Shown: positions 1,173 through 44,440 of the stretch, piece after piece
Layout: the number at the start of each line of letters is the position of its first letter
How positions within the stretch are numbered: position 1 is the stretch's first letter
DNA from: Halobacteriovoraceae bacterium
GTDB lineage: Bacteria; Bdellovibrionota; Bacteriovoracia; Bacteriovoracales; Bacteriovoracaceae
NCBI GenBank assembly: GCA_002713145.1
Contig: PAVS01000014.1
Span: forward strand, 62,001 to 126,000
Direction of reading: 5' to 3'
DNA length: 64,000 bases
Translations under genes and position numbers: made by a program
The notes under the pieces: generated by a model
Databases searched by the model: none
Seen by the model: only the letters and a program-made list of their open reading frames with translations
What the model was told of the DNA's origin: nothing

Positions 1173-1189
1173 GGAAATGTAATGCGATG

Positions 1190-1204
1190 TGTCAAATTTA
1201 GACA
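1190..1204 (+). promoter_or_regulatory. palindrome in the leader of the GAF-AAA+-Fis gene
   Basis: TGTCAAATTTAGACA, an imperfect inverted repeat. It shares the TGTC and TTAGACA arms with the site at 41567-41583 upstream of a sigma-54 promoter. It sits just downstream of the predicted start of transcription (near 1179), the place expected for an autorepression operator. The regulatory role is inference. Confidence 0.4.
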
Positions 1205-1235: not shown

Positions 1236-2735
1236 ATGAAGAGTGCTTTAGATGTGAGTAAAGTTTCAACACTAGAAACCGAGTTACTACAAAACCTAGA
1301 TGAGAGAGTCTTTTTTGGGAAACTATCTATATTTCTACAAGATTTATTTAATGAATATAAAGTACAAGTTTTTGAAGCTTACCCAGATGGAGCAAGTGAA
1401 CTGGTAGCTGAAAATGGAGAAGAAATCCATAATGGGATCTTCTATCAAAAAGGCCAAGGGCTCGCTGGTTATGTAATTCGTACTAAAAGAGCTTATTACT
1501 CTAATTCTCCAAGAGATCCGCTATTGGCTTCTACAAAAAGAGATGATTGTGTTCACTCTGAAATTTGTGTTCCCCTCATTTCAGAAGGTGCGATTATAGG
1601 TACAGTTAATATTCAGAGTAAAGATGAAGACAGAAAGTTCTCTGAAGATGATATCACTGTGGTGAACGAATTAACTGAAAAACTTAAATCTCCACTTAAT
1701 AATATTAGACTCTACCTTATTGCTAAAAATCTTAATCGTGAATTAGAGCTAAAAATAAAAGAAAAAGAAGAAGAGCTTCTTCACAGAGGGCCTTCTGTTA
1801 ATAAAACTTCTCAAAGCTTAGGCAAGATTGAAATGGTTGGGACTTCTCATGCATTTCTTGAAATCGTAAACATTGCTAAAAAAGTAGCTAAAGAAGATTT
1901 TCCGGTTCATATTTCTGGAGAAGCTGGAACGGGTAAGAAGATGCTTGCGAAAAAAATCCACTCTATTAGTGAGAGAAAAGAGTCAAGCTGTCTAACTGTT
2001 CACTGTGCTTCTATAGATGAAAAACAATTAGAGTTAGAGCTTTTTGGTTCAACCCAAAGACCAGGCGCCATTCAGAGAGCAAATGGTGGAACGCTTATCT
2101 TAAATGGGGTTGAGCATATGACTGAAGCCAGCCAAAGAAAATTACTAAGATTCTTAGTTAGTGGTGAACTCTACAATATTGATTCAAGTGCCCCTCTGCC
2201 GGTGAATGTGAGAATGATCACAACCACAAAAGCAGATATCGCAAAGCTTGCTGACGAAGGTGAGTTTAATGAAGAGCTTCTTTACCGTCTCAATATCATG
2301 AGCATCAAAATGCCTTCGCTAAGAGAGAGAAAAGACGATGTTAAAATTCTCTCTGAGAAATTTATCAATGAAATGAGCAAGAATTCTGGTAAGATGCTAA
2401 CGAACAAAGCAGTGGATAAACTAAAAGCCTACTCATGGCCTGGCAATATTCATGAACTGAAAAACCTCATGGAGAGAACAGCTATTTTAGTAAGCGAGCA
2501 ATTTATTGACGAGGCTCATCTTCCTGAACTTGAAGCAGAAATTGAAGTTCAAGAAGAAGTGATTGAAGATTTCTCTGAAATGACACTTCATGACTTAGAG
2601 AGAATCCATATCTGTAAAACACTTGATCATCTAGGTGGTAATAAAACCAGAGCGGCTAAGTCTTTAGGTATTACAGTAAAAACCCTCTATAACAAGCTGC
2701 ACAGTTACGGATTAGTTAATCCTAAAAGTGAATAA
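1236..2735 (+). CDS. GAF-AAA+-Fis regulator, degenerate sigma-54 activator type
   Basis: Domain order is that of a bacterial enhancer-binding protein: N-terminal GAF sensor (about residues 20-150), a charged helical linker, an AAA+ domain (about 195-420) and a Fis-type HTH (about 450-495, GGNKTRAAKSLGIT). Walker A is present (GEAGTGKK, 228-235), as is an RLN arginine motif. The GAFTGA loop that contacts sigma-54 is absent: LFG at 269-271 is followed by only a short segment before GGTL. Walker B reads TLILNG, with the usual D and E replaced by N and G. It therefore probably binds DNA but neither hydrolyses ATP normally nor remodels sigma-54 polymerase. The SD AAAGGAG is well placed. A leader palindrome resembles sites near two sigma-54 promoters in this window. 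Confidence 0.85.
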   Translation: MKSALDVSKVSTLETELLQNLDERVFFGKLSIFLQDLFNEYKVQVFEAYPDGASELVAENGEEIHNGIFYQKGQGLAGYVIRTKRAYYSNSPRDPLLASTKRDDCVHSEICVPLISEGAIIGTVNIQSKDEDRKFSEDDITVVNELTEKLKSPLNNIRLYLIAKNLNRELELKIKEKEEELLHRGPSVNKTSQSLGKIEMVGTSHAFLEIVNIAKKVAKEDFPVHISGEAGTGKKMLAKKIHSISERKESSCLTVHCASIDEKQLELELFGSTQRPGAIQRANGGTLILNGVEHMTEASQRKLLRFLVSGELYNIDSSAPLPVNVRMITTTKADIAKLADEGEFNEELLYRLNIMSIKMPSLRERKDDVKILSEKFINEMSKNSGKMLTNKAVDKLKAYSWPGNIHELKNLMERTAILVSEQFIDEAHLPELEAEIEVQEEVIEDFSEMTLHDLERIHICKTLDHLGGNKTRAAKSLGITVKTLYNKLHSYGLVNPKSE

Positions 2736-39028: not shown

Positions 39029-40054
39029 TTGAAAATATTCATCATGATTTTTTCACTAATGAGTATCAATATACATGCAGATGAAATATTGTGCTTGCGT
39101 AAAATACAGGTAGAGAATAAAGCTATCGGAGAAGTGAAAAGTCTTTTGCAACTTTTTCAAGCCAGTTGTGAGAGCCAGGTTCAAAATGCTTGTGAGAGTC
39201 TTGATCCCAACATTCCTATCGTTCATACTTATGAAAATGGAACCGTATTATTTAATCCTCGTTATGTGCTCCCCGAAAATCCTCCTCAGCCTATAGCTAA
39301 GATGTTAGATCCAAATCAGATTAATATTGCCAATTATGAAGGTTCACATAATGGAAACTTATTGGCCGATAGTCTGACCACGCCAGCAGGAGAGGGGAAA
39401 ATTACAGTTTTGTTTCATGAGTTAAAATCAATCTTGGTTAAGAGAATAGAGAAATCTCTTGGGGCGAATATAGGGGAGACAAGCTTTTCTCATCTTGAAT
39501 ATATGGGAATTGAAATTTTAGATCGAGAAAGATGTCGACGTCCAAATAGAACTCCTATTGTTGCGAGTATAGATCCACAAAATAATAGATTAGTTATTTG
39601 TCCCTTGATGACCCATTTGAATGCAACAAGTCTCGTGGCTATTTTGGCCCATGAATTAGGTCACGCTATTGACCCTTGCCGCTATAAACTGAGTGAGTCA
39701 GAAAGGGTTCATCATCCTTATCAAAATATACATAATTGTCTTGCTCAAAACCGAAGCAGTGCTAATCAATGCCCACGAGCTATCGAGACCGAAGAGGAAG
39801 AAATCTATGCTGACTTAACGGGAGCAGCACTTGCAGATGAATTTTTGCGAATAGGTCACCCGATTTTAGAGTTTTCATCAGATCATAATCAAAGAATTAT
39901 AGAATTTATGAACTTTAGAATGGTGGGATGTGAAGAACAAATAAACCATGAGTTTTACCAAGGGGAACAAGCGCAAAGCTTATTGAATTGCTCTGATGAA
40001 ACAAATGATGATTCAAGCCTTCCCCCCCATAGACAGTGTAGGATTAATGAATGA
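39029..40054 (+). CDS. exported zinc metalloprotease-like protein
   Basis: A 341-residue protein with a signal peptide (to about residue 18) and the zinc motif ILAHELGHAID; a third ligand may be the Glu in EEEIYADLTGAALADE. At least ten Cys suggest disulfides. TTG at 39029 is chosen because GAGGGG at 39013-39018 is 10 bases upstream; an ATG at 39044 would leave too short a signal peptide. Substrate unknown. It overlaps the following gene by ATGA. Confidence 0.78.
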   Translation: MKIFIMIFSLMSINIHADEILCLRKIQVENKAIGEVKSLLQLFQASCESQVQNACESLDPNIPIVHTYENGTVLFNPRYVLPENPPQPIAKMLDPNQINIANYEGSHNGNLLADSLTTPAGEGKITVLFHELKSILVKRIEKSLGANIGETSFSHLEYMGIEILDRERCRRPNRTPIVASIDPQNNRLVICPLMTHLNATSLVAILAHELGHAIDPCRYKLSESERVHHPYQNIHNCLAQNRSSANQCPRAIETEEEEIYADLTGAALADEFLRIGHPILEFSSDHNQRIIEFMNFRMVGCEEQINHEFYQGEQAQSLLNCSDETNDDSSLPPHRQCRINE

Positions 40055-40431: not shown

Positions 40432-40452
40432 CACTGTATATTAATTAGTCAT
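40432..40452 (+). promoter_or_regulatory. putative activator site (UAS) upstream of sigma-54 promoter
   Basis: CACTGTATATTAATTAGTCAT matches the element at 41564-41584 in 15 of 21 positions, including CACTGT, TTAG and CAT. It begins 61 bases before the -24 GG of the sigma-54 promoter, the same distance as the other copy. Confidence 0.5.
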
Positions 40453-40490
40453 TTCTACTTCAATAAACTACCAGAATTGTATTTATTTTT

Positions 40491-40507
40491 CTGGCATGAT
40501 CTTTGCT
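40491..40507 (+). promoter_or_regulatory. sigma-54 promoter (-24/-12)
   Basis: CTGGCATGATCTTTGCT agrees with the sigma-54 consensus YTGGCACGrNNNTTGCW except for T in place of the second C. GG (40493-40494) and GC (40505-40506) are separated by exactly 10 bases. It lies 48 bases before the start at 40539. Confidence 0.8.
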
Positions 40508-40538
40508 TGATAAGAGTCAAAATTATCAGGAGAGAGTT

Positions 40539-41498
40539 ATGAAAAAATCATTATTATGTTCGATGGCAGTTATGTCATTGTCTGTATTTGCTACGAGTCC
40601 TATTTACCCACAAATTGAAGGTGTGGCAGAGATTGATGAAACTATAAGATGTGTAAATAACTTAGAAATATCAGCACAAGTTTCGATGACTCAAAGTATG
40701 CATCTCCAAACACATGTCAGTAATTTAACGGGATATAAAGTTAATAAACTCATAAATGATACTCCTAAAATTAAAGAGCTATCTCAAAAGCTTTCTCAAG
40801 ATTATGGTATCGATGTCGATTTCTCAATATATGGATTAGGTGCTGATACAACAATGGCGATGTTGGAACATGAGAAAAATGAAGAAATCTTTGCACTTTA
40901 TAATGCTGTCAAATCTGAAATAGATAGTGAAAGAAAAAGTGTTATGAAATTGATCAATAGAAATATATATACAAATATGGGAATTGGTTATCCTGGTTAT
41001 GCTGGGTATAACACCAGCTTTACTGGAGGCTTTCCAGGTAATGGTGGCTTTGGTCTCAATATAGGGACATTAGATGTTTACTATGACCTTCATGCAGATG
41101 AAAATGAGAACAATATTGAATTACAGTATAATGCATATTTTAATGACTTTGTCGTTCAATCAGCTGCTGATGCCAATGACGAAATGGAGGGGCAAGCAAC
41201 AGTTTCCTCAGTTATTGATGTTAAGAGTGTGAATTTTGAAATCAAAATGAATAATCCCTATATGAGCGGTAACACAGGTGGATGGGGAAGTTTCAATAAG
41301 TATCAAGTTGTAGACGCTGATACTGGAGAGGAAGTATCTAATACAAACGACCCCTACGAAGTTTGTAGGGCCATTGCCGCTAAAAAATCACGTGTTTTTG
41401 ATGCGAGCATTTCAACCACTGAGCTCACTCCGGAAAAAGATGGAGAATTCATACTTACTGGTGGCGATGCAGCAGGAGCAAGTGTTACTCTAGAATAA
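40539..41498 (+). CDS. exported protein of unknown function under sigma-54
   Basis: A 319-residue protein with a signal peptide (MKKSLLCSMAVMSLSVFA). ATG 40539 follows the SD CAGGAGAG; an in-frame TTG start at 40503 would lie inside the promoter. The middle holds a Gly/Tyr-rich stretch (YPGYAGYNTSFTGGFPGNGGFG) that looks like a flexible or surface segment. The C-terminus is rich in Asp and Thr. Two Cys. No family recognised. It is preceded by a sigma-54 promoter and followed by a strong terminator, so it is a single-gene unit. Confidence 0.75.
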   Translation: MKKSLLCSMAVMSLSVFATSPIYPQIEGVAEIDETIRCVNNLEISAQVSMTQSMHLQTHVSNLTGYKVNKLINDTPKIKELSQKLSQDYGIDVDFSIYGLGADTTMAMLEHEKNEEIFALYNAVKSEIDSERKSVMKLINRNIYTNMGIGYPGYAGYNTSFTGGFPGNGGFGLNIGTLDVYYDLHADENENNIELQYNAYFNDFVVQSAADANDEMEGQATVSSVIDVKSVNFEIKMNNPYMSGNTGGWGSFNKYQVVDADTGEEVSNTNDPYEVCRAIAAKKSRVFDASISTTELTPEKDGEFILTGGDAAGASVTLE

Positions 41499-41523
41499 AT
41501 AAAAAGTCATATAAGTCTTTACG

Positions 41524-41549
41524 AGCCGGCTCTTTAGAGCTGGCTTTTT
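41524..41549 (+). terminator. intrinsic terminator
   Basis: Stem AGCCGGCTC / GAGCTGGCT (one G-U), loop TTTA, then a short T run to 41549. It ends the unit of the 40539 gene, 26 bases after its stop. Confidence 0.85.
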
Positions 41550-41563
41550 CTATAAAAAGTTCA

Positions 41564-41584
41564 CACTGTCTAAATCTTAGACAT
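41564..41584 (+). promoter_or_regulatory. putative activator site (UAS): perfect palindrome upstream of second sigma-54 promoter
   Basis: Contains TGTCTAA ATC TTAGACA (41567-41583), a perfect inverted repeat with 7-base arms. The 21-base element begins 61 bases before the -24 GG (41625), exactly as in the copy at 40432. Confidence 0.6.
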
Positions 41585-41622
41585 AATAATCAATATAACT
41601 TATTGAAAGTATGATCTCTCCC

Positions 41623-41639
41623 TTGGCATAACCCTTGCT
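41623..41639 (+). promoter_or_regulatory. sigma-54 promoter (-24/-12)
   Basis: TTGGCATAACCCTTGCT; GG at 41625-41626 and GC at 41637-41638 are 10 bases apart, with TTGGCA and TTGCT boxes near consensus. It lies 33 bases before the start at 41672. Confidence 0.8.
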
Positions 41640-41671: not shown

Positions 41672-42247
41672 ATGAAAACATTTTTAAACTTAGCTGTACT
41701 TTTTTTTACTATGAATGCCTTAGCTGACTTTCAATATCGTACCTGTGAAGGTGTAATGCGCATGCAAGAAGGTTTGAATACATCAAATCCTACTTCAACC
41801 GCGAAAGCAGTCAATTTGAGCCTGATGGCAGATGGTACTCAAAACTCTATTACTTTTGCGGGTAAGAACGAAGATGATCAATCTTTTGATTCGCAAATTG
41901 GAGAAATAAGTGAAGATGGAAATTCCATTGTATTTAATCTTGAAGGTGGAGCAAAAGCCGTTATGGAAGTTATAGAAATTAACCAGCAAGGTAATAATGC
42001 AGTTAATGATGTGACTTTATCTTATTATGATAATGATGGTCAGATTATTGTCAGATCAACAGGACTATTAGATTGCAACTATGAACCGGAGTATGCTGAA
42101 GCCTTCGAAAATATTTTTAATAAAAACTTTGGACAACAACCCACTCAAGACTGTACAGCAGGAGTCAATCAAAATGAGATTGAAGCAGTTATTGCTGGAG
42201 CGGAAGCAGCTTCTACTGAAGCAACATCAAATGTAACTCGGGAATAG
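41672..42247 (+). CDS. exported protein of unknown function under sigma-54
   Basis: A 191-residue protein with a signal peptide ending near NALA (about residue 18) and SD AAGGGG. The mature part looks like beta-structure (alternating polar and hydrophobic stretches from 40 to 130) with a Glu/Ala/Thr-rich C-terminus. Three Cys (RTCEG, LLDCNY, QDCTAG). No family recognised. It carries the same promoter and upstream-site arrangement as the preceding exported-protein gene, so the two are probably coregulated. Confidence 0.75.
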   Translation: MKTFLNLAVLFFTMNALADFQYRTCEGVMRMQEGLNTSNPTSTAKAVNLSLMADGTQNSITFAGKNEDDQSFDSQIGEISEDGNSIVFNLEGGAKAVMEVIEINQQGNNAVNDVTLSYYDNDGQIIVRSTGLLDCNYEPEYAEAFENIFNKNFGQQPTQDCTAGVNQNEIEAVIAGAEAASTEATSNVTRE

Positions 42248-42264
42248 TGTCTAAAATTTTGACA
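42248..42264 (+). promoter_or_regulatory. third copy of the TGTCTAA palindrome
   Basis: TGTCTAAAATTTTGACA matches the perfect palindrome at 41567-41583 in 14 of 17 positions. It begins directly after the stop codon of the previous gene and 84 bases before the start at 42332. No sigma-54 promoter is seen at the matching distance. Its right end contains TTGACA, which could be a -35 box. Confidence 0.45.
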
Positions 42265-42309: not shown

Positions 42310-42355
42310 AATAAGAGATAATAGCATCATTATGAAAAAGTTATTATCTCTTATT
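42310..42355 (+). repeat. 14-base perfect inverted repeat around the start codon
   Basis: AATAAGAGATAATA (42310-42323) and TATTATCTCTTATT (42342-42355) are exact reverse complements. The 18-base loop contains the ATG at 42332. In the mRNA the stem would hold the region upstream of the start and codons 4-8, so it may control translation of the 702-residue protein. Confidence 0.6.
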
Positions 42356-44440
42356 TTAGTTATAAGTACCGCTAGTATGGCGGCCAATCATCAACCCCTT
42401 ACCATTCATGATCTTGAATTGAATTTAGAGCAAGCGGATAAATGTGCTCTCATTGGATCCAGGTTTGAAGATATTGTAGCCGAGCTTAAAGCGGTGACTG
42501 AGTCCTATGATGGAAAATGTGTCTCAAGAGCAGAAACAGCTATCACAAATATTCAAGCCGATATGCAAAGTTTAGAAGAGGCGCGAGCTGAACTTGAGCT
42601 AGGGCAAGATGATACCGAGCTTGTGATGTCAGATGATCAGAGAGTGCGCTTTCAATCGACCCTCAACACTATTGGCTCTATGCTTAGTGAGAAGCAGTGT
42701 CGAAGTGAATTTAAGGATAAAGGTTTTCTTCCTATCCTTGCTAATACCGTGAATTCCATCTCTCAAATTGCCATGCTTAGCACTTCTCCCACAGGAATTG
42801 CTGTGGGTGTAGGGGGCTCTATTTTGTCTGTCACCCTTAAGGCCATCACAGATATTTTCACTCCTAAATTTAAATGGACTAATGAAGCTGATCGAAAAGC
42901 TTTTTTAACTTTTAACTGCTCCTACCAAACAGTCAAAAAGAAAATCAAGGATCAAGGTGTATATAATTTAAAAGACTATGAATTAGAAAACTTGATCTCT
43001 CAAACAGCAAAAGAGTTAGACGAACTTAAAAAAATAAAATTTGCAGAAGGCTCTATCCATAAACAGCTGGAAGAGATCAATCAAGAAGAACAAAAAGCTC
43101 TGGCAGAAGCTGAGCTTGCTAGGACTTCTATTGTAGTTGAACACGCAGTAGGACAGGATTATTATTTAGCTCATAAAGATGTAGTGAGGGCTTTAGAGAA
43201 AATGAATGAGCAAGCGGGCTTATTAGATCCCAGTCTTACTCAAGCCCAGCTAGATGTGCGTAAGGCCCAGGTTTTCTCAAAAATTCTCGCTGAGTACCAA
43301 ACCATTCAGACAAGAATTCCACTTATTAAGCCTAATGAGTCTAATATTTTTGACACCATCTTGTATCAAAACACGAAAGATAAATTAAGAATATTCACCG
43401 CAGATAATGCCTTAAAGCTCATGCAAATTAAAAGTGAAGAGATCGCTCAGCTTAAAAATGATCTCGCTTATAGTTTAGATGTGGTGAAGTCACTTCAACA
43501 AAACCTCTATGATAAAAATGTGGCATTACTCACTCCAGTGGAAATCACTCATTTACAAAATAAAATTGCCAGTGAACAAGAAATTAAAGCAAAGTATGAT
43601 CTCAAGCGCCAAGCTTTGATTAACACCGATCAAAATAAATATCAGCAAGAAGAAGATTATTACACAGACGTGGTTAATAAAGTGGCCGAGCTTGAAGTCA
43701 CCTTGGCAGAACTTAAGGCCCAAAAAACAACTATTGTCGGACAAGAACGTTACACCCTCAATAATGCAGGTGTAGAAAATGATGTAACGATTTACAATCT
43801 AGATAGGCTTAATTCTGAAAGAATCTATGGCCCTATTGGTTATAGTTTTATTCGTTATCTCGTGAGTCAGTCAAAAGAATCCTTACAAGATTTTGAGAAT
43901 AATAAAGAGAGACTTAGCTCTCGTATGAATTATCTAGGGTTTGAAGGACTGAGTGAGCAAGGAAAAATATCCTATTGTATCAATATGCGTGAGATGCAAA
44001 AAACATATACCAGCTCAGCTTTTCCCTCAGAGATGGGGTATGATTTTGTGGTGACAAATATGAACCTCTTCCATAATTTATTAAAAGATGATTTTGTTTT
44101 AAGTAGTGAGAGAAAAGAATTAAGAGATCATGCGTTCTCTGCTCTCTATGCTCGCTCACTTATTATGAAATATTATTCAAAAGAATATGCTGAATTACAA
44201 ACTCCGGATCAACTTTTGAGTTTTGCGGAAAACTTAAAATATGAAATTAATCCAACGGAATGTGTTGAGTCGAGCGGTCTACTTTCTAAAATCTTTGGAT
44301 CAAAAAAGAAATGCGGTTTTAAGCATGAGCATGTCTTTTTTAGAAACTCTATAGGAAGGGAGATGATCAAGTCCGTGGTGGCTGAGCGTTTTGCTCTAGA
44401 TATTCAGCGTAAAGTGGCAAAGTATTGTACTGAGTATTAA
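42332..44440 (+). CDS. large exported protein with coiled-coil, unknown
   Basis: A 702-residue protein with a signal peptide (MKKLLSLILVISTASMAA). A hydrophobic Gly/Ser-rich segment (about 140-170) could insert in a membrane. Long helical, probably coiled-coil stretches follow (about 225-480), rich in Glu, Lys, Gln and Leu. The C-terminus has Cys residues in KKCGFKH and AKYCTEY. No family recognised. It is the third exported-protein gene in a row after the two sigma-54 genes and carries a related palindrome upstream. No good SD is visible. Confidence 0.75.
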   Translation: MKKLLSLILVISTASMAANHQPLTIHDLELNLEQADKCALIGSRFEDIVAELKAVTESYDGKCVSRAETAITNIQADMQSLEEARAELELGQDDTELVMSDDQRVRFQSTLNTIGSMLSEKQCRSEFKDKGFLPILANTVNSISQIAMLSTSPTGIAVGVGGSILSVTLKAITDIFTPKFKWTNEADRKAFLTFNCSYQTVKKKIKDQGVYNLKDYELENLISQTAKELDELKKIKFAEGSIHKQLEEINQEEQKALAEAELARTSIVVEHAVGQDYYLAHKDVVRALEKMNEQAGLLDPSLTQAQLDVRKAQVFSKILAEYQTIQTRIPLIKPNESNIFDTILYQNTKDKLRIFTADNALKLMQIKSEEIAQLKNDLAYSLDVVKSLQQNLYDKNVALLTPVEITHLQNKIASEQEIKAKYDLKRQALINTDQNKYQQEEDYYTDVVNKVAELEVTLAELKAQKTTIVGQERYTLNNAGVENDVTIYNLDRLNSERIYGPIGYSFIRYLVSQSKESLQDFENNKERLSSRMNYLGFEGLSEQGKISYCINMREMQKTYTSSAFPSEMGYDFVVTNMNLFHNLLKDDFVLSSERKELRDHAFSALYARSLIMKYYSKEYAELQTPDQLLSFAENLKYEINPTECVESSGLLSKIFGSKKKCGFKHEHVFFRNSIGREMIKSVVAERFALDIQRKVAKYCTEY

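What the first reader, a model, noticed from the sequence alone, without database searches (positions are those of the whole stretch)
40432..41639. Two exported-protein genes with near-consensus sigma-54 promoters and an upstream element at the same 61-base distance
Sigma-54 promoters at 40491-40507 and 41623-41639 both keep GG-N10-GC. Each is preceded by a related 21-base element (CACTGT...TTAG.CAT, 15 of 21 identical), and in both cases the element begins 61 bases before the -24 GG. The copy at 41567-41583 is a perfect palindrome, TGTCTAA ATC TTAGACA. Sigma-54 promoters need an activator bound upstream. Identical spacing of a shared element beside two independent promoters is strong evidence for a real regulon of unknown exported proteins.
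Basis: partly seen in the sequence, partly recalled or inferred. Interest (0 to 1): 0.8.

Follow-up and report, generated by a model that had tools for sequence, protein, structure and literature searches.

The report
Sigma-54 switch for exported proteins
Two genes for exported proteins in a bacterium of the Halobacteriovoraceae carry the same DNA switch, and the same switch sits, turned to the same face of the DNA helix, in front of dozens of other exported-protein genes across this family of (mostly predatory) bacteria, so it marks an undescribed set of proteins made together for the cell's outside.

Summary
Both promoters and both 21-base elements are as stated (15/21 identical, 61 bases before the -24 GG). 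In the same genome the palindrome TGTYTAANNNTTARACA has 5 perfect copies (0.02 expected); 17 sigma-54 promoters carry it upstream, all before genes for proteins with signal-like N-termini. Across 37 related genomes, 62 palindrome-promoter distances cluster at about 55, 66, 74, 85, 95 and 105 bases: one face of the helix (period ~10, 0 of 5000 simulations). A third element, like an IHF site, lies at a fixed place near the promoter. Sigma-54 promoters without the palindrome rarely precede exported-protein genes. So 61 bases is one of several phased spacings, not unique. The most likely activator is a conserved enhancer-binding protein encoded outside the window (L059, 526 aa): intact GAFTGA, invariant DNA-binding domain, palindromes at its own promoter inside and outside the family. 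Its gene has a FliA-type promoter, suggesting FliA -> L059 -> sigma-54 -> exported proteins. The mechanism is classical; the regulon, its site, its activator and the family-wide link to exported proteins appear undescribed in the open-access papers searched. Binding, transcription and any role in predation are untested.

The parts
40432..40452 (+). Upstream activator element 1 (degenerate palindrome TGTATATTAATTAGTCA at 40435-40451)
   Evidence: PWM score 13.7 against a training 5th percentile of 13.3; in phase, distance 56 to the promoter 17-mer
40464..40476 (+). Position of the IHF-like element, weak here (TAAACTACCAGAA)
   Evidence: position; poor match
40491..40507 (+). Sigma-54 promoter 1, CTGGCATGATCTTTGCT
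40539..41498 (+). Gene 1: 319-aa protein with signal-peptide-like N-terminus, no known family, no homologue in 58 relatives
   Evidence: structure prediction uninformative, pLDDT 38
41564..41584 (+). Upstream activator element 2; 41567-41583 is the perfect palindrome TGTCTAAATCTTAGACA
41596..41608 (+). IHF-like element TAACTTATTGAAA at the conserved offset (-27 from the promoter 17-mer)
41623..41639 (+). Sigma-54 promoter 2, TTGGCATAACCCTTGCT
41672..42247 (+). Gene 2: 191-aa protein with signal-peptide-like N-terminus, no known family, no homologue in 58 relatives
   Evidence: pLDDT 46
42248..42264 (+). Third palindrome TGTCTAAAATTTTGACA, 84 bases before the ATG of gene 3; no recognisable -24/-12 promoter follows
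42332..44440 (+). Gene 3: 702-aa protein with signal-peptide-like N-terminus, no family found
1188..1204 (+). Weaker palindrome TGTGTCAAATTTAGACA, 48 bases before the start of the GAF-AAA+-Fis regulator gene
1236..2735 (+). GAF-AAA+-Fis regulator lacking GAFTGA and the Walker B acidic pair: considered and rejected as the sigma-54 activator

Best explanation
The two genes belong to a family-wide sigma-54 regulon for exported proteins. A dimeric Fis-type enhancer-binding protein (EBP) binds TGTYTAANNNTTARACA upstream. The DNA between it and the promoter is bent, probably by IHF or a similar protein at a fixed site, so that the activator, always on the same helical face, reaches the sigma-54 polymerase waiting at GG-N10-GC and opens it with ATP. 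The activator is most likely L059 (G000:C4:35087-36664, minus strand), a 526-aa protein with an uncharacterised N-terminal sensor. It probably also binds its own promoter, which is of the FliA (sigma-28) type. This suggests the order FliA -> L059 -> sigma-54 -> exported proteins, tied to the motile phase. Shown at sequence level: palindrome, promoter, phasing, fixed third element, exported-protein bias, conservation. Inferred: binding, looping, identity of activator (about 0.7) and bending protein (about 0.5), FliA control (about 0.75), timing.
For: Palindromes: 5 perfect against 0.02 expected. Combined pattern: 9 against 0 control in this genome; found in most of 37 family genomes with 1 control hit; a tighter pattern found mainly in the family and rarely elsewhere in the phylum, control 0. 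Phasing: R=0.61 at 9.9 bp, n=62, 0 of 5000 simulations; other genomes alone R=0.60, and this genome's sites fall on the same phase (-2.55 against -2.62 rad). Exported targets: 56 of 65 against 20 of 57 window ORFs by one heuristic; 17 promoters in this genome, all with signal-like N-termini. Of the 20 perfect own promoters, the 9 with a palindrome all precede exported-type genes, against 2 of 6 scorable ones without. IHF-like element at -28..-26: 28/186 against 46/2425, p=1e-14. One rpoN. L059: GAFTGA and invariant HTH; present in 33 of 37 family genomes, the four misses being at most 88% complete; palindrome-like sites upstream in 18 of 28 family orthologues, against 0-1 of 10-11 for three other EBP groups, and in 12 of 17 outside the family, p=1e-12; FliA-type promoter in 25 of 29, shuffle rate 0.3%.
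Against: No binding or transcript data. L059 is not adjacent to its targets, and in the family part of its palindrome-like signal overlaps the FliA promoter itself. L057 and L058 also have intact GAFTGA and invariant DNA-binding helices. Several of the best palindromes precede exported-type genes without a recognisable -24/-12 promoter, so the protein may also act at other promoters. One palindrome (L031) lies at 43 bases, out of phase. L059 is present across the phylum, yet the phased pattern is concentrated in one family. Assembly contamination is 8.3%.
Confidence: 0.85

Rival explanations
1. Same regulon, but the activator is another EBP, most plausibly L058 (response regulator with FleQ-like helix) or L057 (response regulator following a likely histidine-kinase gene), so the exported proteins answer a phosphorelay rather than L059's sensor.
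For: Both have GAFTGA and invariant DNA-binding helices in the 11 family genomes compared.
Against: No palindrome above chance upstream of L058 orthologues (0 of 11) and 1 of 11 for L057, against 18 of 28 for L059; the TGTC-N8-GACA upstream of L058 overlaps an ordinary TTGACA/TAGCAT promoter.
Confidence: 0.22
2. The palindrome is an operator for a repressor or for a sigma-54-independent regulator, for example the GAFTGA-less GAF protein of this window, and co-occurs with sigma-54 promoters because both serve exported-protein genes.
For: Palindromes without -24/-12 promoters also precede exported-type genes; the GAF regulator's gene has a palindrome at -48 here and similar ones in a few relatives.
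Against: Helical phasing relative to the sigma-54 promoter is expected of an activator touching that polymerase; many other GAF-gene hits proved to be coding sequence or the -35 region.
Confidence: 0.07
3. Chance: sigma-54-like and palindrome-like strings in AT-rich DNA.
For: In the window alone the first element is within chance; at up to 3 mismatches the genome holds no excess of palindromes over the reversed control.
Against: 5 perfect against 0.02 expected; 9 against 0 control; phasing in 62 sites, reproduced without this genome.
Confidence: 0.01

Closest known systems
NifA- and NtrC-type sigma-54 promoters with upstream activator site and IHF
   Same: 17-bp dyad bound by a Fis-type EBP, IHF-like site between it and the -24/-12 promoter, helical phasing (the known features are from general knowledge of the field).
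   Different: Different dyad (TGTYTAANNNTTARACA); targets are exported proteins; the best activator candidate has its own N-terminal domain and reaches no NCBIfam equivalog cut-off shown, NifA and NtrC included.
FliA (sigma-28) attack-phase regulon of Bdellovibrio bacteriovorus (PMC3627812)
   Same: A FliA-type promoter like TTAAG-N16-CCGATA precedes the L059 gene; that paper says about a third of attack-phase promoters lack the FliA site and may be served by further regulators.
   Different: There FliA acts directly; here a sigma-54 activator would stand in between. In the passages searched the paper describes no such site.
Sigma-54 as controller of the bacterial exterior (PMC3162934)
   Same: General theme: sigma-54 and surface components, lipoproteins included.
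   Different: Does not mention Bdellovibrio; a metabolic and comparative theme rather than a named site, activator or exported-protein regulon in these bacteria.

Membership tests
Sigma-54-dependent promoter | TTGGCAC-N5-TTGCW with invariant GG-N10-GC | tested here: met
   0 mismatches to YTGGCAYN5TTGCW at both promoters
Sigma-54-dependent promoter | Genome encodes RpoN | tested here: met
   single PF04963 match, E=6.5e-60
Sigma-54-dependent promoter | Transcription depends on RpoN | not testable with these tools
   needs 5'-end RNA-seq with and without rpoN
EBP-activated enhancer (UAS) promoter | Shared dyad upstream of several sigma-54 promoters | tested here: met
   17 promoters in this genome, 62 sites across the family
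EBP-activated enhancer (UAS) promoter | Helical phase between dyad and promoter | tested here: met
   R=0.61, 0 of 5000 simulations; same phase in independent genomes
EBP-activated enhancer (UAS) promoter | Bound by an EBP with GAFTGA and a Fis-type HTH | tested here: inconclusive
   L059 is the best candidate; binding not testable here
IHF-assisted sigma-54 promoter | IHF consensus site between UAS and promoter | tested here: inconclusive
   IHF-like element at a fixed offset, p=1e-14, clear at promoter 2 and weak at promoter 1; IHF genes were not searched for
NifA / NtrC regulon | Activator is NifA or NtrC | tested here: not met
   L059 scores 344 bits against a nifA cut-off of 529 and 332 against an ntrC cut-off of 559
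GAF-type EBP as the activator (window 1236-2735) | GAFTGA loop and Walker B acidic residues | tested here: not met
   ELFGSTQRPGAI in place of the GAFTGA loop and LILNGVEH in place of LFLDEIGD

The most novel reading that the evidence does not exclude
Halobacteriovoraceae have a three-tier program, FliA -> L059 (sensing an unknown signal) -> sigma-54, that switches on a rapidly turning-over set of lineage-specific exported proteins and hydrolases in the hunting phase; the phased palindrome then works as a sequence tag for finding predation factors among otherwise unannotatable genes in any genome of the family.
Probability: 0.4. Interest if true: 0.75.

Novelty: new member of a known kind. Interest (0 to 1): 0.62.

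Why it matters
Most targets are exported proteins without a recognised family; a few are secreted hydrolases or related enzymes such as subtilase, PLD-like and GH28. A phased site that marks them gives a way to list co-regulated, possibly predation-related proteins from sequence alone, names an activator to test, and offers a natural set of about 60 promoters for studying how enhancer distance and helical face act at sigma-54 promoters.

Tried and rejected
(1) GAF-EBP of the window as activator: rejected, no GAFTGA and no Walker B acidic pair. Its apparent upstream palindromes at about -225 to -240 read as coding sequence for DLYIMD, and those at about -92 as the -35 region and spacer of a conserved sigma-70-type promoter. 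(2) L061 as activator: its DNA-binding helix varies between species. L060 and L062: G015 has only seven EBPs, apparently none of these two groups, yet has two clear sites. (3) Exactly 61 bases as the rule: replaced by phased distances. (4) Structure prediction of the two window proteins: pLDDT 38 and 46, no fold search made. (5) Orthologues of the two window genes: none in 58 relatives. (7) Papers: no account of sigma-54 regulation or of this site in Bdellovibrio-like bacteria among nine searches; only open-access papers are held. The hit at L156 (DAHP synthase) is probably a false positive.

Full report
WHAT IS THERE. The sequence matches the finding base for base. The two promoters are the only perfect sigma-54 matches in the window. 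The two 21-base elements share 15 positions and start 61 bases before the -24 GG. Taken alone, the first element is weak: three mismatches to the palindrome, a class with about 4.7 chance matches per window. The case had to be decided outside the window.

THE GENOME. The window is C17:62001-126000 of a 3.75-Mb, 25-contig assembly. Its nearest named relative found is a MAG titled 'Halobacteriovoraceae bacterium' (66% identity over the window's GAF regulator). The palindrome TGTCTAANNNTTAGACA occurs 5 times perfectly and 14 times with one mismatch. A first-order Markov model of the window predicts 0.02 and 1.1. A pattern joining a relaxed palindrome to GGCA-N6-TTGC at 48-108 bases gives 9 hits and none for the reversed control. 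A weight-matrix scan of the stretches held gives 17 promoters with a palindrome, each before a gene whose product begins like an exported protein. The distances are 55, 56, 56, 57, 57, 65, 67, 67, 73, 73, 74, 75, 83, 84, 86, 86 and 94; two of these promoters have a second palindrome.

PHASING. In 37 family genomes the joint pattern recurs with one control hit. The 62 distances with good palindromes fall into clusters about 10 bases apart, with near-empty gaps: Rayleigh R=0.61 at 9.9 bp, none of 5000 uniform simulations as high. Leaving this genome out gives R=0.60, and this genome's distances fall on the same phase to within about 0.1 base. This is what a DNA-bound activator facing a polymerase across a short loop requires, and it is hard to produce by chance or by an unrelated operator. 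The 61-base spacing of the finding (56 in the start-to-start measure used here) is the commonest class of several.

A THIRD ELEMENT. Between palindrome and promoter an IHF-like sequence (TAACnnnTTGAAA on this strand) lies at -28 to -26 from the start of the promoter 17-mer: 28 of 186 positions match against 46 of 2425 elsewhere, p=1e-14. It is clear at promoter 2 (41596-41608) and weak at promoter 1. Whether IHF is the protein was not tested.

WHAT IT CONTROLS. A signal-sequence heuristic marks 56 of 65 target proteins against 20 of 57 window ORFs; by eye several of the rest also begin like exported proteins. Sigma-54 promoters in general do not show this. Among the 20 perfect promoters of this genome, the nine with a palindrome all precede exported-type genes, while of six scorable ones without it two do. 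Targets are mostly unclassified; those with a Pfam family include subtilase, PLD-like, GH28, S15 and C26 peptidases and peptidyl-arginine deiminase. The subtilase has orthologues in five genomes downstream of such promoters, with palindrome and promoter at 84-85 bases in each.

WHICH ACTIVATOR. The genome has one rpoN and nine EBP-like proteins. Three lack GAFTGA, among them the GAF protein encoded in this window at 1236-2735, which also lacks the acidic Walker B pair; it is unlikely to activate sigma-54. Of those with GAFTGA, L061 has a variable DNA-binding helix, and L060/L062-like proteins were not found in G015, which has two clear sites. That leaves L057, L058 and L059. Upstream of L059 orthologues palindrome-like sites exceed the shuffle threshold in 18 of 28; for L057, L058 and L061 the numbers are 1 of 11, 0 of 11 and 0 of 10. 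Inside the family much of this signal overlaps a FliA-type promoter (TMAAGTTT-N11/12-GCCGAWAA), so the test was repeated outside the family, where many of the genes have no such promoter: 12 of 17 exceed the threshold, p=1e-12. The L059 helix is nearly identical across the phylum. L059 is therefore the best candidate, at about 0.7.

CASCADE. 25 of 29 family L059 genes have a FliA-type promoter close upstream, with a shuffle rate of 0.3%. In Bdellovibrio bacteriovorus FliA is reported as a global attack-phase regulator with the consensus TTAAG-N16-CCGATA (PMC3627812). By analogy the regulon would follow entry into the motile phase, gated by L059's unknown signal. This is inference.

RANGE. A tight pattern restricted to the shortest spacing class finds the arrangement mainly in this family and in four genomes of other families of the phylum, with no control hits. 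L059 itself is phylum-wide, so the expansion of its targets appears to be a feature of the family.

LIMITS. Everything is sequence-level. Signal sequences were judged by a simple hydropathy rule. Only genomes in the held set were searched, and the window's assembly is listed with 8.3% contamination. Some palindromes before exported-type genes lack a recognisable -24/-12 promoter and remain unexplained, including the one at 42248 in this window. The literature check covers open-access papers only.

VERDICT. A real regulon of a known mechanistic kind, with a new site, a likely new activator and a family-wide link to exported proteins.

Noticed in passing
window 1236-2735: GAF-AAA+-Fis regulator without GAFTGA or the Walker B acidic pair, found in most genomes of the family and in others of the phylum; its promoter region TCTTGTAAAAAATTCAGACGCANTGTATTAT is very strongly conserved. 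A probable sigma-54-independent EBP relative of unknown role.
   Followed up: partly
L064 (G000:C3:115805-116254) and L065 (G000:C22:141135-141593): Two more EBP-like proteins without GAFTGA, with orthologues in relatives; L065 is encoded about 8 kb from the response regulator L058 and follows a gene for a TPR-like protein.
   Followed up: no
window 42248-42264; L003, L004, L013, L014, L296, L299: Near-perfect palindromes 78-114 bases before genes for exported-type proteins, with no recognisable -24/-12 promoter.
   Followed up: partly
L240-L269, upstream of the L059 orthologues: FliA-type promoters upstream of an enhancer-binding protein gene in 25 of 29 genomes, hinting at a sigma-28 to sigma-54 cascade, the reverse of the usual flagellar order.
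   Followed up: partly
window 39029-40054: Exported-type protein with an HELGH motif and weak M76/M48 peptidase matches below the curated cut-offs.
   Followed up: no
L031 (promoter G000:C17:4856-4872): Good palindrome only 43 bases before a perfect sigma-54 promoter of a lipoprotein-like gene: too close and out of phase.
   Followed up: no
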